The notes under the pieces were generated by a model. It ran no database searches, was not told where the DNA came from, and saw nothing but the letters and a program-made list of their open reading frames with translations. Positions 109 to 55,558 of a stretch of DNA of 64,000 nt are shown piece after piece. Numbering within the stretch: position 1 is the first letter of the stretch; every line of letters begins with the position of its first letter. The stretch covers positions 2,294,001 to 2,358,000 of the forward strand of contig CAKKNE010000006.1 of the NCBI GenBank assembly GCA_918797485.1, read 5' to 3'. Position numbers and translations under genes: made by a program. The DNA comes from Pelagomonas calceolata (taxonomy: Eukaryota; Sar; Pelagophyceae; Pelagomonadales; Pelagomonadaceae).

Positions 109-131
109 GCTAGTGCCTTACATACCGCTAA
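109..131 (+). promoter_or_regulatory. CTAG inverted-repeat promoter motif, copy 1
   Basis: The site reads GCTAGTGCCTTAC followed by a CGCTAA arm, 54 bp upstream of the prolyl 4-hydroxylase start at 186. It is one of 12 related sites in the window, all in upstream intergenic DNA. The two arms (GCTAGTG and CGCTAA) form an imperfect inverted repeat. Binding by a protein or a core-promoter role is inferred from recurrence and position only. Nothing else is recognisable in bases 1-185. Confidence 0.6.
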
Positions 132-185: not shown

Positions 186-1730
186 ATGAGAGCGCTACTT
201 ACATTCGCATTGCTGGCCTGCAGCGCGCGGGCCGGCTGGTTCAGCCGCGGTGGCACTGAAAAGCCAGATACCAAAAAAGCAGCCCCAGCAACACCAGCCG
301 CGCCCGACGCCGCCGAGAAAAAGACAAAGGCGCCGCCGCCGCCGCCCGTCGAAGAGCTGGCCGCCGCCGAAAGGGACCACACCTGCGCCGCCGGCCTCGT
401 GTTCGATGTCTACGCGAACGGCGCGTCTGAAAATCCGGTCAGAGTAGAAATGTCCGGCGGCCAGTGCGAGACGGTAGCGGCCTTCGAAGCTGCCGTGTCG
501 AGAGCGGTTTGTGAAGATACGGCGGCCTGTCATGTGCGAGACGGCGCCGGGAGAAGAGTACGGCGCTGCTCCGAACTCTCGAGAAACAGCGCCGAGGCGG
601 GCGTCCAGCCTGGATTAATCCCGCGGGCCTACGGTGTCAGGAGAGACATGCGCTGGGTCTTTCCGACGGAGGAGGTTGGTTATAAACGATACTTACCCCA
701 CCTGCAGATCACGTTAACGACGCTCGCGGAGGAGCCTCGACTTTTCGCCCTCGACAACTTCCTGACCGAAGAGGACGCGTCGCAGCTCATCGAAGACGCC
801 CTAGCTATTTCTGATGATGAGCACAAGCTGACACGGAGTAGTGTGGGCGCCAAGGGCTACACGGTGTCCTCCACGAGAACGTCGGAGAATGCTTGGGTCA
901 AAGATACAAAAACGGCCATGCGCATGAAACGTCGAGCGTTTGAATTACTGGGCTTCGACCATTACGACGAGCGCATGGCCGACGGGCTGCAAGTTCTCAG
1001 ATATAACAACACGAATGGCTATGCGGCGCACAAGGACTACTTAGATAGGCCGCGAGGTTTGTCGAGGGAAGCGATGGAGCCGTCCCTGGGTGGTGCTAAT
1101 AGACTCGCGACGGTGTTCTTGTACTTATCCGACGTGCAACACGGCGGCCAGACGGTCTTTCCTCACGCGCCGCGGCCTTCGATTGCATCATCATTACCAG
1201 CTTTGGAGTCCAGACCGTTAGATGACGAGGTCATTGGACTGAGAGACGCTATAGTATCAAAAGATGAATACACGTGGGAGCCCCGTTTGATCGATGAGTG
1301 CTATACCAAATTAGCAGCAGCCCCGAAGAAAGGTCGCGCGATCCTCTTCTACAGCCAACATCCGGATGGTACGTTGGACAACATGGCGACGCACGGCGGC
1401 TGCCCCGTCCTCGAGGGCACGAAGTGGGCGTCGAATCTGTGGATCTGGAACAAGGCGATGCCCTTTGGTTCTTCTCGGTTCCAGTCAAAGGACGACGATT
1501 CAGGAGATAGCTCAGGCGTCGACGTCGAGGTCTCTACTACTGGTGTCAGTGCCGAAGTGTTCTGGGTTGGTGGCGGCGGCGAGGAGGCGCCCATGGGGAC
1601 GGTCTCACAGGGAGACAACCTGCGGCTGAACTCGTTCGTGGGACACTCGTTCGTGGCGCGGCGGAATGGCGCGGAAGTTTCTAGGTATACGGTCGCGCGG
1701 GGGGCGCAGGCGTGGGCCGTGCCTCCGTAA
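186..1730 (+). CDS. Secretory prolyl 4-hydroxylase with C-terminal VHL-beta-like domain
   Basis: A 514-residue protein opening with a clear signal peptide (MRALLTFALLACSARAG), so probably acting in the ER or Golgi. The central region, about residues 185-425, is a 2-oxoglutarate/Fe(II) prolyl 4-hydroxylase domain: metal ligands H282, D284 (AHKDYLD) and H403 (ATHGGCPV), and the 2OG-binding lysine K413 in EGTKW. The family hydroxylates prolines in secreted proteins or cell-wall glycoproteins. After about residue 440 comes a tail (AEVFWVGGGG, then NSFVGHSF) that resembles the beta domain of the von Hippel-Lindau protein, which binds hydroxyproline. The enzyme assignment is secure; the VHL resemblance is a by-eye comparison. 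The start was chosen because the signal peptide begins there; promoter motif copy 1 lies 54 bp upstream. Confidence 0.9.
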   Translation: MRALLTFALLACSARAGWFSRGGTEKPDTKKAAPATPAAPDAAEKKTKAPPPPPVEELAAAERDHTCAAGLVFDVYANGASENPVRVEMSGGQCETVAAFEAAVSRAVCEDTAACHVRDGAGRRVRRCSELSRNSAEAGVQPGLIPRAYGVRRDMRWVFPTEEVGYKRYLPHLQITLTTLAEEPRLFALDNFLTEEDASQLIEDALAISDDEHKLTRSSVGAKGYTVSSTRTSENAWVKDTKTAMRMKRRAFELLGFDHYDERMADGLQVLRYNNTNGYAAHKDYLDRPRGLSREAMEPSLGGANRLATVFLYLSDVQHGGQTVFPHAPRPSIASSLPALESRPLDDEVIGLRDAIVSKDEYTWEPRLIDECYTKLAAAPKKGRAILFYSQHPDGTLDNMATHGGCPVLEGTKWASNLWIWNKAMPFGSSRFQSKDDDSGDSSGVDVEVSTTGVSAEVFWVGGGGEEAPMGTVSQGDNLRLNSFVGHSFVARRNGAEVSRYTVARGAQAWAVPP

Positions 1731-1835: not shown

Positions 1836-1858
1836 ACTAGTGTGTTACTGGTCGCTAG
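1836..1858 (+). promoter_or_regulatory. CTAG inverted-repeat promoter motif, copy 2
   Basis: The site reads ACTAGTGTGTTAC followed by CGCTAG and lies about 170 bp upstream of the ankyrin gene at 2028. It is in the same orientation as that gene. The rest of the 1731-2027 spacer shows nothing else I can name. Confidence 0.6.
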
Positions 1859-2027: not shown

Positions 2028-2762
2028 ATGTTTGGGCCGCTACCTCACGACACAGGCGCAGTATATCAAGCTTGTTACAGGCTCGATGTTGACGCGCTGC
2101 GGCGCGCGTTGGCGAACTTGACGGCCGAAGCCGACCTATCATTCCGCCGGTTGGGGACCGCAGGCCATGTCGGTTTCACCCCACTCCATATTATCGTCGA
2201 TCGCAGTGATAACGCGGAGATGGTTTCAATGTTGTTAAAAGCAGGGCACGACATCAATGCTCGCACTAACACTGATGGCCCGACAGCCCTTCACATAGCA
2301 GTAGGCCACGGCAGAGTAGATTGTGTCGCGGCCTTGCTCGCCGCCGGGGCGTCAGTCACCATAAAATATGATGGATTGGAGCCCATCGATGAAGTGACAA
2401 ATAATAACTGCCGGCGGATTGTCCCCATGCTTCGTCGGGCCAGCTCCGATGGGGTCTATTTGGACCAACAGCGACCAGGCACTTCTGATCCGAGGTTCTG
2501 GTTTCATGATTGGGACGGGCGGCCGTATCACGAGGAAAACTATCAAATTCTCTCGACTTACTTCATGAAGATTTTTATGTCGAACTCAGGGTCGAAGATA
2601 TTTTTGTCAGGCCCAGCGGGTCATGGTCCGGGGACCTTCGCGACCTACGAGAAGGCCCACCGCGCGCGCCTCACCAAGACCTTCGTGCCCAAATTCCCGC
2701 AACTCCCGCCGGACGTCATCCCGACGATCGTCGCGTTCGCCTTCCACACGGGCTGGTACTAA
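2028..2762 (+). CDS. Ankyrin-repeat protein
   Basis: A 244-residue cytoplasmic-type protein without signal peptide or membrane segment. Two good ankyrin repeats are visible: residues about 48-80 (GFTPLHIIVDRSDN, then LLKAGHDINA) and 83-114 (GPTALHIAVGHGRVDCVAAL). A weaker repeat may precede them around residues 10-40 (VYQACYRLDVDALRRAL). The C-terminal 100 residues are not recognised and end in a hydrophobic stretch (DVIPTIVAFAFHTGWY). Ankyrin repeats are protein-interaction modules; no partner can be inferred. The stop is only 7 bp from the stop of the convergent alcohol dehydrogenase gene, so the two transcripts must overlap at their 3' ends. Confidence 0.8.
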   Translation: MFGPLPHDTGAVYQACYRLDVDALRRALANLTAEADLSFRRLGTAGHVGFTPLHIIVDRSDNAEMVSMLLKAGHDINARTNTDGPTALHIAVGHGRVDCVAALLAAGASVTIKYDGLEPIDEVTNNNCRRIVPMLRRASSDGVYLDQQRPGTSDPRFWFHDWDGRPYHEENYQILSTYFMKIFMSNSGSKIFLSGPAGHGPGTFATYEKAHRARLTKTFVPKFPQLPPDVIPTIVAFAFHTGWY

Positions 2763-2769
2763 CTCACAC

Positions 2770-3906
2770 TTAATCGTTATCGTAGCACGCGTGGTAGAGC
2801 CGCGCGACGTCGGCCTCGGACGGCACGAGCGGGTTGTTCGCCGGCGACCCCGACGCGAGCGCGTCCCGCGCCATGCCGGGCACGGCGTCCCTAAACATAC
2901 GCTCGTCGACGCCGCGTTCTAGCAAAGCGTCGCGGAGCGACGGCACGCCCAGGGAGGATGCGAGATCATGAAGCGCGGTCGGCAGGTCGCCGTCGAGCCC
3001 GAGCGCCTCACTACATTGCGCGTACCGCTCGCGAGCACCCTCCAGGGAATAGGCCGTGACCGCGGGCATGAGCACGGCGTTCGACCGGCCGTGCGCTAAA
3101 TGAAAACGCGCGCCGAGCGGCCGCGACATGCCATGAATCAGCGTCACGGACGACACGGAGAAGGACACACCGGCCAGAAACGCCGCGCGCGCCATGCCGT
3201 CCCTTCCTTCTGCCTCGTCGTCGACCGCGCTCCGCAGGTGGCGGCCGATGCCTTGTAAAGCGTCGAGCGCGAAGCCGTCCGCGAGCGGTGAGCTCTTTTT
3301 AGATACAAAGGCCTCCATGGCGTGGCAGAGCGCATCCACACCAACGTCCGCCGTCAGTGCTTTGGGAGAACCGTCCGCGAGGGCCCCGTCGACAATACAA
3401 GCTGCTGGGACGAACGCCGCCCCGGCGCACAGCATCTTCTCGCCACTCTCGGAGTCCGTGACGACGGCGTAGCGCGTCACCTCCGCGCCCGTGCCCGCCG
3501 TCGTCGGCACGGCGACCATCGGTAGCGTTGGTGGCGTATCCGTCAGGACGGGAGCCTTGTAGTCGCGGCATTTTCCGCCGTTTTCGGAAAGCACGACGGC
3601 CAGCTTCGCCGCGTCTAAGGGACTGCCGCCCCCTATGGCTAAAACGCCGTCCGCGCCGGAGCTCGACAGGGCCGCGGCCATCGCGTCGACGCGATCCGAC
3701 GTCGGCTCGTCAACCTCGTCGGCGTAGACCTCTCCACTTAACTCATTACTGTCTAGGACGCTTCTGGTCAATGCTTCGAGGTTCTTGTCCGTGACCACGA
3801 AGGGTTTTGAGACGTTGCACTGCTGCAGCACGCTTCGGAGCTGCGTTTTTGCTGCGCCGCGGCCTAGAGCGACGATGCGCGGAAAAAAAGCCGTGGCGCT
3901 CGCCAT
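2770..3906 (-). CDS. Iron-containing (group III) alcohol dehydrogenase
   Basis: A 378-residue protein from the ATG at 3906. It belongs to the Fe-ADH family: NAD(P)-dependent oxidation or reduction of an alcohol or aldehyde. The nucleotide-binding GGGSPLD lies at about residues 92-98, followed by TTAGTGAE. Metal ligands fit D191 and H195 (GVDALCHAMEAF), H258 (HGMSRPLGA) and H272 (AHGRSNA). The frame stays open to an upstream ATG at 4035, which would add 43 residues rich in Ser, Ala, Cys and His. That extension could be a targeting peptide, so the true start is uncertain. The substrate cannot be deduced. The gene is divergent from the CCCH/exonuclease gene across promoter motif copy 3. Confidence 0.9.
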   Translation of the reverse strand: MASATAFFPRIVALGRGAAKTQLRSVLQQCNVSKPFVVTDKNLEALTRSVLDSNELSGEVYADEVDEPTSDRVDAMAAALSSSGADGVLAIGGGSPLDAAKLAVVLSENGGKCRDYKAPVLTDTPPTLPMVAVPTTAGTGAEVTRYAVVTDSESGEKMLCAGAAFVPAACIVDGALADGSPKALTADVGVDALCHAMEAFVSKKSSPLADGFALDALQGIGRHLRSAVDDEAEGRDGMARAAFLAGVSFSVSSVTLIHGMSRPLGARFHLAHGRSNAVLMPAVTAYSLEGARERYAQCSEALGLDGDLPTALHDLASSLGVPSLRDALLERGVDERMFRDAVPGMARDALASGSPANNPLVPSEADVARLYHACYDND

Positions 3907-4132
3907 GCGTGCACTTGCAGCGGTGCGAGCCGCGGAATTGCAGCTATGCGGGCTGTGGCACGGCTGCAGCGGCAGAGCTTGGTGAGTGCACTGCACAGCG
4001 CGCACAGCCGTCGAGTTGGACGGCACCGGTCGCACAGCACTGGTGCCAGAGTCCGGGAGGTCAGACGGCAGGCTTCAATGCCGCACTCAGCTTGCGGTGG
4101 GGCCTGCATCGACGCCGTAGTTTGTGTGTGCT

Positions 4133-4154
4133 TCTAGTGTCTTACGGCCGCTAG
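4133..4154 (+). promoter_or_regulatory. CTAG inverted-repeat promoter motif, copy 3
   Basis: The site reads TCTAGTGTCTTAC followed by CCGCTAG, one base shorter than the usual form. It sits in the divergent spacer between the Fe-ADH gene (start 3906 or 4035) and the CCCH/exonuclease gene (start 4189 or 4297). Confidence 0.6.
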
Positions 4155-4188
4155 GGGAATTTTTCTGATCTGTGTTTAGATCGACTCC

Positions 4189-5502
4189 GTGGAGAGCCGA
4201 CCGGTGGAAAGAGCTTCCACGGACGACGCGCGTGCGGGAGAGCCAAGGAGCAGCTTTGCAGGCAAGAGGCTGGGTTTGCGGGCGAGGAGCGTAATTATGG
4301 CAGCGCTAGCGGAGACCCCAGCACCCCCGACGACGACTACGATCACAGATGTTACCGCGCGAGCAACAAACGCGGCTGCAACCGTCCCTCCGGCGACGGT
4401 AGCACCTGCAACCCAACCCAAAGCAGGCCCGAGCGGCGCGACGCCCCCTTCCGCGACCGCACCCGGGCCGGCACGACCGCCCGCGCCGCCCCCGACCGCG
4501 GGCCCGTCCAGGGGCGCCGCGAGCCCCCGCGCGGCGGGCACCTCGAGACCCGGCCGCGCGCAGACGCCCTGCGTCTTCTTCGCCAAGGGGAGCTGTCGGA
4601 ACGGCGCCCACTGCCCCTTCGCCCACATTAAGGCGGAGGAGCTACCGGACGTGTCCAAGCTAGAAGTCAAAGAGGAACCACAAGCGCCGGACTCGCCGCC
4701 GAGGCGGCCGTCCGGCGTCGCCATCTGCCGCTTCTTCGCGCAAGGGCTGTGTCGGAACGGCGCGAACTGCCGCTTTTCCCACGGCGAGACGAAACAAACA
4801 GCCACGGGCCCGGCCCTATCGGCCGAGACCTCATTACTGCTAAGACGGTTAGAAACGGGAGAACTACCGATGTACGCCCTGGATGTCGAATGTGTGGCCA
4901 CGGGCAAGACCCATAATGATAGGGCAGTGGCGCAGATCGGTCTCGTCGACGCGTACGGGCGGTGCGTCCTGAACGTTTATGTGAAGCCGAAAAAAGAAGT
5001 GGTTTCCTACTTGACACCATTGACTGGATTGACGGCGGCGTTGATCGATGAACGAGGAGTCCCGCTCGAGGAGGCGATTCGGGTCCTACGATCGCGACTA
5101 CCCTCATCAGCGGCATTGGTGGGTACAAATATCGGCCAGGACGCGAAATGGCTCGGACTCACGGCGCCGGGCGACTGCGCGTTGCTCGTGGACCTGGCGG
5201 CGTTGTTCCGAGCGTGGGACGGAAGTAGATACGTCTACTTCAGCCAAGACCACTGCGCCAAAGTGTGGCTCGGCGCCGTGCGGCCGCCGAACGTCGCCCA
5301 CGACGCCGTCGGGGATGCGGCGGTGTCCATGGCTCTCCTGGGTTGTTATATGAGGATGCCCGATTCCGCGAAAGCCCAATGTCATGCGCGAGCCTTGGCG
5401 ACGCCGCGCGATCCCTCGTTTGCTGTCAAGCATCCCTCGTTCGAGGGCGTGTGCCAAGGGAATCGGCGGCTTTGTACTTGTGGCGCGCCGCACTTCTCGT
5501 GA
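4189..5502 (+). CDS. CCCH zinc-finger / DEDDh 3'-5' exonuclease protein
   Basis: A 437-residue protein. After a Thr/Pro/Ala-rich N-terminus come two C-x7-C-x5-C-x3-H zinc fingers, PCVFFAKGSCRNGAHCPFAH at about 128-146 and ICRFFAQGLCRNGANCRFSH at about 179-198. The C-terminal half is an RNase-T/REX4-type DEDDh exonuclease: D232 and E234 (ALDVECVA), D318 (GQDAKWL), H371 and D376 (HDAVGDAAVS). All five catalytic positions are present, so it is probably an active RNA exonuclease guided by RNA-binding fingers. A second in-frame ATG at 4297 (MAALAETPAPP) is an equally good start. The end, RLCTCGAPHFS, looks natural. Confidence 0.85.
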   Translation: MESRPVERASTDDARAGEPRSSFAGKRLGLRARSVIMAALAETPAPPTTTTITDVTARATNAAATVPPATVAPATQPKAGPSGATPPSATAPGPARPPAPPPTAGPSRGAASPRAAGTSRPGRAQTPCVFFAKGSCRNGAHCPFAHIKAEELPDVSKLEVKEEPQAPDSPPRRPSGVAICRFFAQGLCRNGANCRFSHGETKQTATGPALSAETSLLLRRLETGELPMYALDVECVATGKTHNDRAVAQIGLVDAYGRCVLNVYVKPKKEVVSYLTPLTGLTAALIDERGVPLEEAIRVLRSRLPSSAALVGTNIGQDAKWLGLTAPGDCALLVDLAALFRAWDGSRYVYFSQDHCAKVWLGAVRPPNVAHDAVGDAAVSMALLGCYMRMPDSAKAQCHARALATPRDPSFAVKHPSFEGVCQGNRRLCTCGAPHFS

Positions 5503-5945: not shown

Positions 5946-6839
5946 TCACAACTGCAGCGCAGCCATCGGCGACGGCGGGGAGAAGTCCCGGAGCGACTTC
6001 CGGGACGGCGTCCGCTGCGCCTGGGCGAAGCCGTCGCTCGACGCGATGACGACGAGTAGCGCTCTGATTGGATCGGCCTCCCCCGCAACCCTCCCAGTAC
6101 CGTGGGCCAGGCCGACGCGCGCGAGGGCCAGACAAAAGTCCTCGAAGTCCAACTCCTCCTTCGGCCCGAGCACCGCAATCACCTCGTCGACGTCGTCCGT
6201 GAGCGTCGGCACGAGCGCGCAGTCGACGGCCATAAGCCCGAACGAGTACTGGTTCATCAGGCCCTGGTCGCCGTAGGCGTCGAAGAGGCGCTGGATCTTG
6301 CGGCCGACCTGAGCGATCCGCGCGGCGGCGGCCGCCTCCTCGCGGTTCTCGGCGGGCGACGCGATGCGGTTGAAGCCGCGGTCCGCGGCGCGGTCCCGCA
6401 GCGGCGTCGACGGCGTCGCCGGCGCCGACCACGTCACGATCGCTCGGGGCGGCGTGACCGGCGTCGTCGGCGAGCGGTCGCCCTCGGCTGGACGGTACTC
6501 GATGGCCTTCGTGGGCCGCTCGAGGGAGATCCGGCGTGGCCGCCGCCACCGTCGAAACGCGCTCCGGCGCCAGCTCTTGAGCATCGTCGACGCGAGGACG
6601 ACGCATGCGAGGCGCTGGCCGCGCGCCGACGCCGCCGCGGCCCGCGCCAGGATTTGTGACGAGAGGCGCTCGGCCGCCGCCGCGCGCGACGCCTCTAGAT
6701 TGAGACGCCAGCGCATGAAAGCCCGAGTCCGCGCCTTCGTTCTGTTTGCGCGGAGGCGGCTCACGAAATTCACCAGGGCCGAGAGCTGGCGCTTCTTCGA
6801 CATAGTTTTTTTAGAGGATGGCATTTTTTTAGGCCTCAC
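5946..6839 (-). CDS. Basic helical protein with C-terminal EF-hand-like region
   Basis: A 297-residue protein. Residues 1-110 are very rich in Lys, Arg and Ala with W/F-R-R-W patterns (AFMRWRL, SWRRSAFRRWRR) and resemble IQ-type helices. A Pro/Ser/Thr-rich linker follows. Residues about 175-245 (KIQRLFDAYGDQG, then EVIAVLGPKEELDFEDFCLA) look like an EF-hand pair without canonical calcium loops. I do not recognise the family; a cytoskeletal or calmodulin-related role would be inference. A second ATG six residues in (MPSSKK) is an alternative start. It is head-to-head with the TPR gene across promoter motif copy 4. Confidence 0.65.
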   Translation of the reverse strand: MRPKKMPSSKKTMSKKRQLSALVNFVSRLRANRTKARTRAFMRWRLNLEASRAAAAERLSSQILARAAAASARGQRLACVVLASTMLKSWRRSAFRRWRRPRRISLERPTKAIEYRPAEGDRSPTTPVTPPRAIVTWSAPATPSTPLRDRAADRGFNRIASPAENREEAAAAARIAQVGRKIQRLFDAYGDQGLMNQYSFGLMAVDCALVPTLTDDVDEVIAVLGPKEELDFEDFCLALARVGLAHGTGRVAGEADPIRALLVVIASSDGFAQAQRTPSRKSLRDFSPPSPMAALQL

Positions 6840-6989
6840 TGTTTTTCAATGTTTTACTAGTCTAACGATGAGATTCGAGTTCCGAGCCGACCCGTGCGAC
6901 ACACACGGAGATAGAGACAAGGCGTAGAAGCGCACAACCCCGATGAAACAGGTGCAGACCCCCCAGTTTGCCGGGACTTTTGCCGGCGC

Positions 6990-7013
6990 CTAGCGGCCTG
7001 TAGAGACACTAGC
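6990..7013 (-). promoter_or_regulatory. CTAG inverted-repeat promoter motif, copy 4
   Basis: Read on the minus strand it is GCTAGTGTCTCTAC followed by CCGCTAG, preceded by TT. It is the divergent promoter region between the gene starting at 6839 (minus) and the TPR gene starting at 7136 (plus), 123-151 bp from each ATG. Confidence 0.65.
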
Positions 7014-7135
7014 AAGCCGCCCCAGGAGAGGCTCGGCTTTTTCGGCTTAAAGACGCTGCCCCCCCACGCCGCCGCCGCGACGCGCGGGCACGACGCCACC
7101 GCACCGATTCCACCGTCGGCCACCGCCCGAGAAAA

Positions 7136-14510: not shown

Positions 14511-14552
14511 CGCTGTGGCGCGTGGCGGCGGCTGCGGTGCACGACTCTTGTT

Positions 14553-14635
14553 GCGCAGTGCGCTGCACCTTACGTCGCGCCGCTGCGGAGCACTGATGCT
14601 TGGTGAGCGCAGTGCGCTGCTGCAATTACGTCGCG
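14553..14635. repeat. Two-copy direct repeat in the PH-gene upstream region
   Basis: GCGCAGTGCGCTGC followed by TTACGTCGCG occurs at 14553-14579 and again at 14607-14635 (spacer 2 bases longer in the second). It lies 43-125 bp upstream of the PH gene start and may be a duplicated promoter or 5'UTR element. Confidence 0.65.
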
Positions 14636-14762
14636 GAGCCCGGCACTTGCCGCAAGTCGTCGTCCTCGGCTCACACAGTGCTAATCGATGCCAACGCACG
14701 ATATCAAGGTCCTTCGACGGCAGTTTGCTCCCTGTGAGCTATTTTTTTGTGCAATATAAACC

Positions 14763-14785
14763 CTAGCGTCTATTAAGACACTAGC
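14763..14785 (-). promoter_or_regulatory. CTAG inverted-repeat promoter motif, copy 5
   Basis: Read on the minus strand it is GCTAGTGTCTTAA followed by ACGCTAG, preceded by CTT. It lies 42 bp before the FN3 gene ATG (14827) in the divergent spacer shared with the PH gene (14510). Confidence 0.65.
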
Positions 14786-14826
14786 AAGCAAAATCGTTCC
14801 TGACCCTCGGCCTTGCGCTGCCACAG

Positions 14827-18110: not shown

Positions 18111-18369
18111 GTCCCTAGAGCTTGTGCTTTACCTGCGTGCTGTGGGGGCGCGCGCGCGCACGGTATTGGGTTTTGGCGCGCGGGGGTCGGGGCGCGGGCA
18201 AAGGACCTGCAAGGACAGATGAGGTGATCAAGGGTTTGGAGGGCGCTGGCTGGACATTCGTTGTTGCGGGCGGCTGCGCGGCTGGTGAGAGGCTGCGCGG
18301 CGTCAGCGAGCGCGTCAGGCGGCGCGCGCCGGCCGCGTAGCGCGTGGCGGCGGCTGCCGAGCTGTGCTA

Positions 18370-18392
18370 GCTAGTGTCTACACGACGCTAGC
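18370..18392 (+). promoter_or_regulatory. CTAG inverted-repeat promoter motif, copy 6
   Basis: The site reads GCTAGTGTCTACAC followed by GACGCTAGC, with nearly symmetric arms. It sits in the 554-bp divergent spacer between PARN (18110) and the 5-alpha-reductase gene (18665). The rest of the spacer is a GC-rich tract (18230-18350) with repeated GGCTGCGCGG and nothing else identifiable. Confidence 0.65.
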
Positions 18393-18664
18393 TTCGACGC
18401 ACCACGCGCTACAAGCGTTTTGTAGGCCTTGTAGGAGCTTGTGCAGACCTGACGCCGCCAATAGCTGCTCAGTGTTGCCGTGTGGTGCGCTTGATTAAGA
18501 CAGACTGATCCGTTCGCCGCTTCTCCGCCCACAGAGCAGCTTGCTCTCAAACGCTCTGGACGGCCGTCCCAGGGCCTTACACATCACCACGGCGCCGCTG
18601 CGTTTCGTATTATCGTCCTGCGATACACGGCAGTCAAAAGAAAAGAAGTCAACAAAGAAAAGAG

Positions 18665-23283: not shown

Positions 23284-23325
23284 GGCTTTGGGGCAGCGTT
23301 TTGCCGCCGGGGGCTGCCCAAAAAT

Positions 23326-23349
23326 GCTAGCGTCGTGTAACGCACTAGC
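23326..23349 (-). promoter_or_regulatory. CTAG inverted-repeat promoter motif, copy 7
   Basis: Read on the minus strand it is GCTAGTGCGTTACAC followed by GACGCTAGC. It lies 43 bp upstream of the sulfotransferase ATG (23283) and 202 bp from the ankyrin gene ATG (23551). Confidence 0.65.
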
Positions 23350-23550
23350 GAGCAGACTATGGTTTTTAAGCAGCCCCTACCGCTCGCCTGCGCTATCGTT
23401 GCGGCGCGAGACAGACTGTCTGAGGACGCGCCATAGCCGTGGATCACCGCTGTGCACCGCTTCTTGCTCAGCGCTGCGCTTAATTCAAACTCTGATCGGC
23501 CAACCTCCGCAGCGCAGCAGAATCAATTCTCTGCAACGTCCGCAGTAGCA

Positions 23551-25938: not shown

Positions 25939-25961
25939 GCTAGTGTCTTACAGGCCGCTAG
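25939..25961 (+). promoter_or_regulatory. CTAG inverted-repeat promoter motif, copy 8
   Basis: The site reads GCTAGTGTCTTACAGG followed by CCGCTAG and is preceded by TTT. All 23 bases are identical, in opposite orientation, to copy 11 at 51263, 25 kb away. It lies 48 bp upstream of the JmjC gene (25891) and about 240 bp upstream of the gene at 26198. Confidence 0.7.
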
Positions 25962-26197: not shown

Positions 26198-27229
26198 ATG
26201 TCCTCCCTCCTCTCCGACGAAGCTTTAGCGCAAATGGAGCTCAACGAACGCACGGAGTGCGAACTTTTGATCGTGAGCAACGGCATGGACTGCGGGAAGC
26301 TAGCAGCCCTGATCGAAAGCTTGAAGGAGAGCTCGAAGAACGCCGGCTCTCATAAAGCGAGGCAGCTGCTCTGGGAGGGCTATGGTGCTATAGCTTCTAA
26401 GTTAGGAGGCATGGACGGGAGCTACGCCGGTTTTCTGCAGTGGGGGTCCGAGGGTGCTTCGTTGACTCCCGCAACCAAAAAACAGGCCCACGCCTTAGGT
26501 CAAGGTGGTCTGGAAATATTAGGAAGGAGACATCGGCCGCTCGAGGAGCCCGAGTCCAAGAGCTGGATTGTGGTCTTCACGGAGCGAGAGGCGCGAGACG
26601 CTCTGTCAGACATCACGTCCTCGGAAGCGTGTATTTCGATTACGGACAAGGCCTGCCACGTCGGCACGAGATACAAACGAAGGAGGTGCAAGGGCGTGTC
26701 TTCTCCTCTAAAAACGGCCAAGGATTTGGAGAAGTATGTGGCTGAGTTAGCTCCAGCACTACTCAGTGTCGAGTGGTCCTCGTCACAAAACATGGAGACG
26801 AAGGCGTACAACGTCCTACTCGCGGGGAACTTCCCGGCTACACTAACGTCGGCTCTACCTGATGGAGTAGGCCACGTGTCTTCCCATTCGTCAGGAGACA
26901 TCTACGACGCCTTCCTAGCGAGGAGGTCGAAGCATTTCGTGAGCGAGGCAGAACGACTCCTAGATAGCATGGAGGCTGACCTCGGCAAGAAGCAACTCCC
27001 TTGTGTGGTGGCGACGATCAAAGAGGCGTCCTGCTGCCGCAAGAACTGCCTCCTCAAGAAGGCCTACGTCCATTCATCAAAGAAGAAGTTCATCGACGCC
27101 ATCCGAGCTGATGGCGGCGACGTCGAGCTGCACGTCATCGAAGGGGACGTCAAGGGCACGCGCTTCCTCGACTTCGGGGGCGTGGTCTGCGAGATGTTCT
27201 ACCGCGCCGATTTAACCGTCTATGGCTAA
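26198..27229 (+). CDS. Unrecognised protein
   Basis: A 343-residue protein without signal peptide or membrane helix. The N-terminal half is helical (CGKLAALIESLKESSKNAG, then KARQLLWEGYGAIASKLGG), and the middle has short beta/alpha segments (SWIVVFTEREARDAL, YNVLLAGNFPATLTSAL). The C-terminal 70 residues (KKKFIDAIRADGGDVELHV, then GDVKGTRFLDFGGVVCEMFY) loosely recall the last domain of eRF1/Dom34-type proteins, where a glutamate/aspartate-rich strand precedes FGGIAA. This is a weak by-eye similarity only. A Cys cluster (ASCCRKNCLLKKAY) is notable. Its stop directly abuts the stop of the convergent GOLD gene. Confidence 0.7.
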   Translation: MSSLLSDEALAQMELNERTECELLIVSNGMDCGKLAALIESLKESSKNAGSHKARQLLWEGYGAIASKLGGMDGSYAGFLQWGSEGASLTPATKKQAHALGQGGLEILGRRHRPLEEPESKSWIVVFTEREARDALSDITSSEACISITDKACHVGTRYKRRRCKGVSSPLKTAKDLEKYVAELAPALLSVEWSSSQNMETKAYNVLLAGNFPATLTSALPDGVGHVSSHSSGDIYDAFLARRSKHFVSEAERLLDSMEADLGKKQLPCVVATIKEASCCRKNCLLKKAYVHSSKKKFIDAIRADGGDVELHVIEGDVKGTRFLDFGGVVCEMFYRADLTVYG

Positions 27230-38887: not shown

Positions 38888-39004
38888 GCCTTATCGGTGG
38901 CGGCGGCGCTGCGAGGACAACGGCAGGGCAGCGAAAACAGCACGGGAGCGCGTAGCCTTGCCGTAGCGAGTCGACGCAGCAAATTTGCAAGTTATGGTAT
39001 CCGC

Positions 39005-39027
39005 CTTAGCGGCAGTAAGATACTAGC
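39005..39027 (-). promoter_or_regulatory. CTAG inverted-repeat promoter motif, copy 9
   Basis: Read on the minus strand it is GCTAGTATCTTAC followed by GCCGCTAAG. It lies 84 bp before the MYND/RING-CH ATG (39111) and 118 bp from the TLC gene ATG (38887). Confidence 0.6.
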
Positions 39028-39110
39028 CCGCTCTCCCGATCGCATCGCACAGCTCCCTAGCCCCCAAATCGCTGCCCAAACGAGGGCGTCGTGCTACAGC
39101 TGCCCCCAGG

Positions 39111-42251: not shown

Positions 42252-42302
42252 CGCTGCGCCGCCGCGACGGCGTGGGGCTGCCTTTTGCTCTTTTGCTCTT
42301 TT

Positions 42303-42325
42303 GCTAGTGCCTTTGTGCCGCTAGC
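42303..42325 (+). promoter_or_regulatory. CTAG inverted-repeat promoter motif, copy 10
   Basis: The site reads GCTAGTGCCTTTG followed by CCGCTAGC, preceded by TTTT. It lies 52 bp upstream of the methyltransferase ATG (42251) and about 304 bp upstream of the MATE ATG (42629). The rest of this 377-bp spacer has nothing else I can name. Confidence 0.65.
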
Positions 42326-42628
42326 ACGATTATCGAATGGTGGTCAGAGCCCTGAACAGCACGTGAACGCACGCCGACGTGGCCCGAGTGCCACCGAAAC
42401 AAGAGAAAGAGGCTCTTGATTGTACATAGAGCGAGAGACAGCAAAAGCGGCAATAACAAAGCAGTGTGTCATCGCAGAGCACACACTGACGAACACCGCA
42501 TCCAACACCAGAGCTTCGCGTGTGGTGCCTCACACGAGCCGAGCTGCGAGTAGCTCGTACCAGAGAGCTCCGCGTGGTGCCTCACAAGGCGAGCAAGGCG
42601 TAACGCATAACCGTAACGAGTGGCCACC

Positions 42629-50935: not shown

Positions 50936-51262
50936 GCGTCGCGCGCGCGTTGCGCCCCGCGTCCCGCGACGGGCTCCAAATCTAGTGCACTCTACGCAGT
51001 GCCCTCCCCAAGCTTGCTGTACAGCCCTGGGCACGCAAGGAGCGTTGCAGCGTTTTCTCTGCTGTATATCTCGATGCGATTCAGCTGCTATTCGATTCGT
51101 TTCTAAACGAGCTGGGTGCTGCACTGAGCCGAGCTGTGCTCATCCTTTGTGACTGTGCTCTGCGGCTGGCTCGTGGCGGAGCCGTCCTGTAGGCTTAGGG
51201 CTCCCATTGCAAGCCCACCGATCGAAAGAAGACCCAGAAGACCCGTAAACTTGCGCTAATGA

Positions 51263-51286
51263 GCTAGCGGCCTGTAAGACACTAGC
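51263..51286 (-). promoter_or_regulatory. CTAG inverted-repeat promoter motif, copy 11
   Basis: Read on the minus strand it is GCTAGTGTCTTACAGG followed by CCGCTAGC, preceded by TTT. The first 23 bases equal copy 8. It lies 293 bp upstream of CSN2 (51579) in a 643-bp divergent spacer; the other start is at 50935. The spacer also holds GC-rich Arg/Ala-type sequence and nothing else identifiable. Confidence 0.7.
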
Positions 51287-51578
51287 AAACACCAAGGCGA
51301 GGAAGCGCCGCCATTTGTGTCCGCTACAGCCTGCGCGCAGCACACGACTCGCCCAGCGCCTCCATTTGTGCTAGAGACAGCGCGCTGCAAATTTCCAGCC
51401 GCCGCATCGCGCCGCGCGGGAGCACACCAGCCCGCGAGTCACTTGGCGCCGCGCGCCCAACTCGCCCGCCCGCGGCGCCGCGCGCCGAACGAGCGCCACC
51501 AGACGCCCGCCGCAGCGCCCGCCGCCAGCGCGCGCGAGCCGCAACGCACCAGTGACACACTAACGCCAACAAAACAAA

Positions 51579-55258: not shown

Positions 55259-55367
55259 GGCGCAGACGTATGGTGGGGATGGCTACGTCCTTTTGGGGCA
55301 CTGTATGCAATTCGTGCGTGCCGTTCAGTGCCAAAATGAGTCTCTGAGCTGGTTATTTGAGCTGGTG

Positions 55368-55391
55368 CTTAGCGTAGCGACACACACTAGT
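55368..55391 (-). promoter_or_regulatory. CTAG inverted-repeat promoter motif, copy 12 (weak)
   Basis: Read on the minus strand it is ACTAGTGTGTGTCG followed by TACGCTAAG. Both arms are recognisable but the centre is diverged. It lies in the divergent spacer between the SDR (55258) and TFIIE-alpha (55559). Confidence 0.45.
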
Positions 55392-55558
55392 ATGCTCCAG
55401 GCCCGCGGCGCCGCGGCCAGCGAGCGTGTGGTGCACGGCCACGGCGTGGGAGAACGCTGTTGGATCACTGCTACCGGGCGCAATCGCTGCGCCGCATACG
55501 CCGCCGCCGCAGGGCCGCCAAAACGCCGCCGCTGCAGCAGCCCTAGGCAGCACCAAGG

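What the first reader, a model, noticed from the sequence alone, without database searches (positions are those of the whole stretch)
25939..25961. A 23-bp inverted-repeat motif recurs in most divergent promoters
Seen: consensus TTGCTAGTGTCTTAC followed after a short variable stretch by CGCTAG. Copies at 109, 1836, 4133, 6990, 14763, 18370, 23326, 25939, 39005, 42303, 51263 and (weak) 55368, on both strands. All are upstream of start codons; 10 of 15 divergent spacers have one. I found none in a coding region and none complete in a convergent spacer. The arms form GCTAGYG...CGCTAG, like a dimer site. I know no named factor with this site. Inference: a lineage-specific bidirectional promoter element or initiator.
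Basis: partly seen in the sequence, partly recalled or inferred. Interest (0 to 1): 0.85.

Follow-up and report, generated by a model that had tools for sequence, protein, structure and literature searches.

The report
Alga's commonest divergent-promoter DNA element
A tiny ocean alga carries a 22-letter two-armed DNA word, estimated at about five thousand copies, which in the parts examined lies between most pairs of head-to-head genes and looks like the landing site of a still unknown promoter protein.

Summary
The window lies in a 32.4 Mb genome that fits Pelagomonas calceolata (stramenopile alga). The perfect site CTAGTGTCTTAC-N(0-9)-CGCTAG occurs 2,099 times genome-wide, against 0 for the reversed pattern. 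In 244 kb (window plus an independent 180 kb) sites occur in 30 of 48 divergent, 12 of 48 tandem and 2 of 36 convergent spacers. Of 5 hits in coding DNA, 4 lie in apparently over-extended gene starts and 1 is a weak match. Its words head the promoter-enriched k-mers. Orientation is unbiased, position is central between divergent genes, and median distance to the ATG is 173 bp. In a sister lineage (about 80-90% DNA identity) the core is kept at 85 of 90 positions, while 60-bp flanks are 65% alike (57% when shuffled). No pairing changes support an RNA stem. This fits an upstream, orientation-free binding site for an abundant protein (general regulatory factor type) better than an initiator. The factor, transcription starts and chromatin were not seen. 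Perfect copies are scarce in one large low-GC, centromere-like stretch. I found no paper describing the element.

The parts
110..131 (+). site, 2 mismatches, N4; window edge, upstream of ORF 186-1730(+)
1837..1858 (+). site, 1 mismatch, N4; tandem spacer upstream of ankyrin ORF 2028-2762(+)
4134..4154 (+). site, perfect arms, N3; divergent spacer 3907-4296
6990..7012 (-). site, 3 mismatches that one inserted base in the core would explain; divergent spacer 6825-7135
14763..14784 (-). site, 1 mismatch, N4; divergent spacer 14511-14826
18371..18391 (+). site, 3 mismatches; divergent spacer 18111-18664 (CAF1 nuclease / steroid dehydrogenase-like)
23327..23348 (-). site, 2 mismatches, N4; divergent spacer 23284-23550
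25940..25961 (+). site given in the finding: perfect arms, N4; tandem spacer upstream of ORF 26198-27229(+)
39006..39026 (-). site, 2 mismatches, N3; divergent spacer 38888-39110
42304..42324 (+). site, 3 mismatches, N3; divergent spacer 42252-42628
51264..51285 (-). site, perfect arms, N4; divergent spacer 50936-51578
55369..55390 (-). weak site, 4 mismatches; divergent spacer 55259-55558

Best explanation
The element is a promoter-proximal binding site, cTTGCTAGTGTCTTAC-N4(N3)-CGCTAGCt, for one abundant sequence-specific protein or protein complex of Pelagomonas and its close relatives. Most likely it works like the general regulatory factors of yeast (Reb1, Abf1, Rap1): the bound factor keeps a nucleosome-free stretch open between divergent genes, and separate start sites on either side fire outward, so one site serves both genes whichever way it points. 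Shown: copy number, position, lack of orientation bias, strict two-arm geometry, conservation against a changing background. Inferred: that a protein binds, that it is one general factor, that it clears nucleosomes, and that both genes depend on it.
For: 2,099 perfect copies against 0 in the reversed control. Sites in 30 of 48 divergent, 12 of 48 tandem and 2 of 36 convergent spacers; divergent versus convergent Fisher P 5e-8, divergent versus tandem P 4e-4. Coding DNA has 5 hits in 195.6 kb, 4 of them in stretches without coding character at the start of called ORFs. Its words head the promoter-enriched k-mers of lengths 6, 7 and 8. More central in divergent spacers than uniform placement (n 29, sd 0.205, simulated P 0.001) and no orientation bias (13 of 31 toward the nearer ATG). 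Core identity between lineages 85 of 90 against 392 of 600 in 60-bp flanks, shuffled flanks 57%, with a site at the matching place in 7 of 7 relative-ascertained pairs, one of them inverted. Two arms as a rule: no isolated left arm at 1 mismatch or fewer in 244 kb. Spacer lengths in the first 100 of 2,099 listed places: N4 73, N3 17, N2 5, N0 3, N5 2, others 0 (recounted). Flanking genes are of mixed function.
Against: No binding, chromatin, RNA or start-site data. No periodicity seen by eye in dinucleotide profiles around the 44 sites. 18 of 48 divergent promoters lack a site at 4 mismatches or fewer. Genes with the site have slightly lower codon scores than genes without (medians 0.136 and 0.156, n 60 and 71, P 0.03), which does not favour a highly expressed class. 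Perfect copies are scarce in a low-GC stretch that still holds long ORFs, so it is not universal. About 30 bits over 18 columns (my sum, biased up by selecting sites with 3 mismatches or fewer) is long for a yeast-type factor (recalled). Several flanks (77-83% in 3 of 10) are conserved too.
Confidence: 0.57

Rival explanations
1. Bidirectional core promoter element or initiator: transcription of one or both genes starts at or at a fixed distance from the element.
For: Very common, between divergent genes, one per spacer in 29 of the 30 divergent spacers that have it.
Against: No orientation bias (13 of 31; 7 of 12) and broad distance to the ATG, whereas oomycete core elements show forward:reverse ratios of 1.8-5.9 within 100 nt of the start codon (PMC3599244 passages). 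AT skew toward the gene is low within 160 bp of the site (-0.04 to 0.14) and higher beyond (0.16 to 0.42), as if the DNA beside it were mostly untranscribed; this is weak evidence.
Confidence: 0.12
2. Insulator: the bound factor separates two divergent promoters so that they are controlled independently.
For: Central position in divergent spacers. Tbf1 and Mcm1 can insulate divergent pairs in yeast, as cited in PMC9481977 (passage).
Against: Also present in 12 of 48 tandem spacers, where no divergent partner was called.
Confidence: 0.12
3. Ordinary regulon site of a specific transcription factor (for example light, iron or cell cycle).
For: 18 of 48 divergent promoters lack it.
Against: An estimated 5,000 copies for 16,667 genes, and no common function among neighbours: Pfam domains in 11 of 18 genes with a site and 7 of 18 without, with diverse families in both (a small sample).
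Confidence: 0.1
4. Replication origin or meiotic recombination site that happens to lie in promoters.
For: Perfect copies are scarce in a low-GC region of the kind the genome paper links to centromeres and suppressed recombination.
Against: About one site per 6-7 kb by my estimate is denser than needed; strong tie to divergent and tandem promoters.
Confidence: 0.05
5. Debris or ends of a mobile element (MITE or introner) inserted into promoters.
For: A dispersed repeat lies directly beside one site in the sister lineage; a subset of copies shares a longer left flank.
Against: Beyond about 3 bases left and 2 right the flanks of the 44 sampled sites carry little information (6 left and 8 right columns seen); sites stay in place across lineages while flanks change.
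Confidence: 0.02
6. RNA hairpin in a 5' leader or small RNA.
For: Arms could form a 6-7 bp stem with one G-U pair (by inspection).
Against: Of 17 deviating arm pairs in 44 sites none is changed on both sides; 14 are broken and 3 become G-U. Orientation is unbiased relative to genes. No Rfam match at gathering score in the window, L064 and L068.
Confidence: 0.02

Closest known systems
Yeast general regulatory factor sites (Reb1, Abf1, Rap1)
   Same: Common in promoters, upstream of genes, often between divergent genes; Abf1's site is also two-part (recalled).
   Different: Different sequence (by recall of theirs), longer (18 fixed letters), inverted CTAG arms, spacer mostly N4 or N3; factor unknown; open chromatin not shown.
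Oomycete core promoter elements INR, FPR, DPEP (PMC3599244, passages)
   Same: Stramenopile promoter elements found by sequence.
   Different: Those are shorter, strand-biased and mostly within 50-100 nt of the start codon; this one is long, unbiased and centred about 170 bp away.
Mammalian long-motif promoter factors such as ZNF143/THAP11 and NRF1 (recalled)
   Same: Long, well-conserved sites frequent in bidirectional promoters.
   Different: No sequence likeness noted; relation not tested.
RFX X-box (recalled)
   Same: Imperfect inverted half-sites with a small variable spacer.
   Different: Different half-site; arms here are about 18 bp centre to centre with a conserved inner TCTTAC.

Membership tests
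General regulatory factor (Reb1/Abf1/Rap1 type) site | Widespread in promoters of functionally unrelated genes | tested here: met
   30/48 divergent, 12/48 tandem spacers; mixed Pfam families in 18 genes with a site
General regulatory factor (Reb1/Abf1/Rap1 type) site | No orientation preference relative to the gene | tested here: met
   13 of 31 toward nearer ATG; 7 of 12 sense in tandem; one orthologous pair inverted
General regulatory factor (Reb1/Abf1/Rap1 type) site | Sits in a nucleosome-depleted region and evicts nucleosomes | not testable with these tools
   No chromatin data; dinucleotide profiles showed no periodicity by eye
General regulatory factor (Reb1/Abf1/Rap1 type) site | Bound by a known factor of that family | not tested
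   Factor unknown; no candidate searched
Core promoter element / initiator | Strand bias relative to the gene | tested here: not met
   comparator ratios in PMC3599244
Core promoter element / initiator | Fixed distance to transcription start | not testable with these tools
   No start-site data; distance to ATG is broad
Insulator between divergent genes | Restricted to divergent spacers | tested here: not met
   12 of 48 tandem spacers also hold one
Insulator between divergent genes | Uncouples expression of the two genes | not testable with these tools
   No expression data held
Mobile element (MITE/introner) copy | Homologous sequence beyond the motif in most copies | tested here: not met
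   Near 0 bits from the third column right of the arm and 0.14-0.32 bits four to six columns left (44 sites); a minority share a longer left flank
Structured RNA element | Compensatory changes in the stem | tested here: not met
   0 of 17 deviating pairs compensated in 44 sites

The most novel reading that the evidence does not exclude
A pelagophyte-specific master promoter organiser: one unknown factor with a two-part DNA reader marks about 5,000 promoters on the chromosome arms, opening most divergent gene pairs, while centromere-proximal low-GC domains run on a different promoter type without it.
Probability: 0.3. Interest if true: 0.8.

Novelty: new member of a known kind. Interest (0 to 1): 0.6.

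Why it matters
[quoted passage not shown] listings). A single element found in 30 of 48 divergent promoters of the sample gives a direct handle on how this lineage starts transcription, a bait for its factor, and a marker for correcting gene starts: it exposed 4 of my called starts as probably too far upstream. It also offers an independent test of whether promoter-organising factors of the yeast type arose repeatedly in compact genomes.

Tried and rejected
RNA stem: rejected for lack of compensatory changes and of orientation bias. Mobile element: rejected as a general account. Nucleosome phasing from CG, WW and GC profiles: nothing periodic by eye at the 44 sites. Highly expressed or housekeeping class by codon score: the reverse tendency, weak. 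Functional theme by Pfam: 36 of the 40 genes listed were scanned (18 with, 18 without); left out were 3 that ran over a locus edge and one 'without' gene whose over-extended start contains a site (L001:4891-6399). No theme. Viral contigs: 40 stretches hold the 15-mer, mean GC 39%; none kept the right arm at 1 mismatch or fewer (spacer 2-6), which fits chance. The Palibaumannia match L066 was taken as chance, not proved so. A direct-repeat control gave 268 hits, but 95 of the 100 listed are the ordinary inverted site read through CGCTAGCG (my reading of the list), so it is a poor control; 5 of 100 are truly direct. Paper search by motif letters returned 749 papers; I saw only the 20 listed, none of whose titles is about an algal promoter. 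A first flank comparison with free end gaps gave 336 of 600; two of its ten flanks were pushed apart by the free gaps, so I use the stricter alignment, 392 of 600.

Full report
Where it is. The window is C6:2,294,001-2,358,000 of a 32,445,274-base genome in 8 contigs. C7 is 90,574 and C8 39,373 bases; an ORF of C7 matches Ycf4 and three ORFs of C8 match respiratory complex I subunits, so they are plastid and mitochondrion. Together with 62.5% GC this fits Pelagomonas calceolata RCC100: 32.4 Mb, six nuclear contigs, a 90-kb plastid, a 39-kb mitochondrion, 63% GC, 16,667 genes and 0.45 introns per gene (PMC9481584, passages). The identification rests on these figures, not on a name given by a tool.

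The observation. All 12 copies are real. I took an independent 180 kb (C1:1,000,001-1,180,000), called genes by codon preference in both sequences (37 and 120 ORFs; one ankyrin ORF added by hand) and scored the 18 fixed letters CTAGTGTCTTAC and CGCTAG with a spacer of 2-6. At 3 mismatches or fewer the window has 11 and C1 33 sites against 0 and 1 for the reversed motif. At 4 or fewer they have 13 and 38 against 3 and 2, with 5.4 expected from Markov sequences. Genome-wide there are 2,099 perfect sites against 0 and 3,083 for a looser pattern against 0. Scaling by the sample (44 sites with 3 mismatches or fewer, about 19 of them perfect) gives roughly 5,000 copies; this is my estimate and assumes the sample is typical.

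Where the sites lie. Among spacers of 30 bp or more, sites (4 mismatches or fewer) occur in 30 of 48 divergent (1.56 per kb), 12 of 48 tandem (0.65 per kb) and 2 of 36 convergent (0.22 per kb); coding DNA has 5 in 195.6 kb (0.026 per kb). Of the two convergent hits one has 4 mismatches and one, in C1, only 2; I did not settle whether the short ORF beside the latter is real. Four of the five coding hits lie 64-207 nt inside called ORFs. There the stretch before the site has a codon score of -0.009 to -0.126 and the stretch after it 0.065 to 0.147, with an in-frame ATG downstream; the fifth has 4 mismatches and is compatible with chance. So I count no convincing coding copy. By sequence alone the site's own words head the enriched 6-, 7- and 8-mers in 94 promoter regions: CACTAG/CTAGTG is seen 48 times where coding frequency predicts 4.0. 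Other words such as GGCTGC (98 against 35) are frequent but less enriched.

Anatomy. Consensus cTTGCTAGTGTCTTAC-N4-CGCTAGCt (44 sites). The arms are inverted CTAG half-sites, but the left reads CTAGT in 42 of 44 at its fifth letter and the right, read from its own end, CTAGC in 43 of 44, so the site has a direction. In the first 100 places listed the spacer is N4 in 73, N3 in 17, N2 in 5, N0 in 3 and N5 in 2. In the 244-kb sample there is no left arm (1 mismatch or fewer) without a right arm. Direction is not tied to genes: 13 of 31 divergent sites point to the nearer ATG, 7 of 12 tandem sites are sense. In divergent spacers of 150-700 bp sites are more central than uniform placement (29 sites, P 0.001); distance to the ATG has median 173 and quartiles 120 and 246 (74 distances). 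GC content dips at the site. AT skew toward the gene stays between -0.04 and 0.14 within 160 bp of the site and is 0.16-0.42 beyond.

Conservation. A scan of genome contigs (one genome for each of 84,980 prokaryotic species) for the full site gave 6 stretches. Four lie in marine 'Spirochaeta' genome bins and one in a 'proteobacterium' bin; the sixth, L066, I take as chance. A search of the whole bins added one more contig, L078. Those tested match this alga's nuclear genome: L061 82% over 7.8 kb, L064 83-94% in collinear blocks, L078 80-87%, L072 (the record of L063) 82-88% in its main blocks. L062 matches only in 2043-3615 of the 8,000 bases tried, at 90-96%. I read them as mis-binned pelagophyte DNA from a sister lineage; L062 is less clear. 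L065 was not compared. For 7 sites in the relatives, 7 of 7 matching places here hold a site: 6 in the same orientation, 1 inverted. One of the six (L062) is too similar to inform. In the other direction, one site here (pair D) is a shortened, degenerate copy in the relative. A weak relative site at L064:462-482 (4 mismatches) has no counterpart here at 4 mismatches or fewer. Over five informative same-orientation pairs the core is identical at 85 of 90 positions, and 3 of the 5 changes can be put down to one inserted base. The 60-bp flanks are identical at 392 of 600 by ordinary global alignment, against 57% for shuffled flanks; 3 of the 10 flanks are conserved too (77-83%).

What it is not. 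Arm pairs do not co-vary: 17 deviating pairs, none changed on both sides, so neither an RNA stem nor a cruciform is favoured. It does not behave as a strand-specific core element: oomycete core motifs show forward:reverse ratios of 1.8-5.9 within 100 nt of the start codon, and the same paper calls motifs 75-300 nt upstream of the start site without orientation bias probable enhancers or proximal elements (PMC3599244, passages). My distances are to the ATG, not to the start site, so the likeness is loose. It is not a mobile repeat in general.

How it most likely works. An abundant factor with two linked DNA-reading parts, or a heterodimer, grips both CTAG arms and the inner TCTTAC, tolerates a base or two of spacer change, keeps the promoter open and lets starts form on both sides. 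This follows the yeast general regulatory factor model. Those factors can also block unwanted divergent transcription, and some factors insulate divergent pairs (PMC9481977, passages), so activation, barrier and insulation remain to be separated. Binding, open chromatin and start sites are inference.

Limits and results against. 18 of 48 divergent promoters have no site at 4 mismatches or fewer; their best matches have 5-7 mismatches or none. Neighbouring genes show no functional theme. Codon scores are slightly lower with the site. No nucleosome phasing was seen. Between C1:2,585,325 and 2,963,178 no plus-strand perfect site is listed where 12.3 are expected (one search's list is complete for that strand there, judging by its numbers), and 3 fifteen-mers on both strands where 12.9 are expected. 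Twenty kb from the middle are 48% GC and have one 4-mismatch hit against 2 in the control. They hold long ORFs (up to 881 codons), but most of these score negative under my GC-rich codon model, so I did not confirm them as genes. This region was chosen after the fact. It fits the low-GC, centromere-linked troughs of the genome paper, which reports only slightly lower gene density there. Other low-GC troughs were not examined.

Literature. Searches (listings) gave no description of this element. Of PMC9481584 I saw the abstract and passages, of PMC5917014, PMC12700378, PMC3599244 and PMC9481977 passages; supplements were not open to me. A loose lead: the giant virus of the related alga Aureococcus methylates adenines in CTAG-type words (PMC12700378, passages); no link to this element is shown.

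Noticed in passing
G000 C1:2,585,325-2,963,178; sample L087-L088: Large stretch (48% GC in the 20 kb read) with long ORFs but few copies of the element: 0 plus-strand perfect sites listed against 12.3 expected. Its genes may use another promoter type.
   Followed up: partly
L064:299-455 and about 2038-2198; C1 copies near 1,126,260 and 1,107,977: Dispersed repeat of about 157 bp, here starting TGTTACGGTGCTAGGACTAGTGGGCGG, with 39 listed matches in this genome (40 of 271 candidates were scored). In the sister lineage a diverged copy lies directly beside a promoter site where this genome has no insertion. Its first 33-47 bp also occur alone.
   Followed up: partly
L061-L065, L078 (NZGT01000041, CAJWEZ010000013, NZGT01000179, NZGT01000013, CAJWOS010000634 and G001:C182): Marine 'Spirochaeta' genome bins hold pelagophyte nuclear contigs or segments (mis-binning); a 'proteobacterium' bin probably too, not compared.
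   Followed up: partly
L072:1487-1523: A subset of copies shares about 14 extra bases on the left (GGGGATGC before CTAGTG): 19 short matches elsewhere in the genome at 79-100% identity, most 88-95%.
   Followed up: no
L078:1432-1545: Short repeat inside a stretch homologous to C6:2,676,663-2,678,052; its part 1484-1541 has dozens of listed matches at 86-97%. Possibly an introner element.
   Followed up: no
window and C1 promoters: Second tier of promoter-enriched words: GGCTGCCC/GGGCAGCC, GCTGTG, TGTGCA.
   Followed up: no
L066:2448-2468: Perfect match in a 4-kb contig filed under an insect symbiont (42.6% GC); taken as chance.
   Followed up: partly
C1:1,170,528-1,170,548: A 2-mismatch copy in a called convergent spacer, an exception to the promoter rule unless the neighbouring 120-codon ORF is spurious.
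   Followed up: partly
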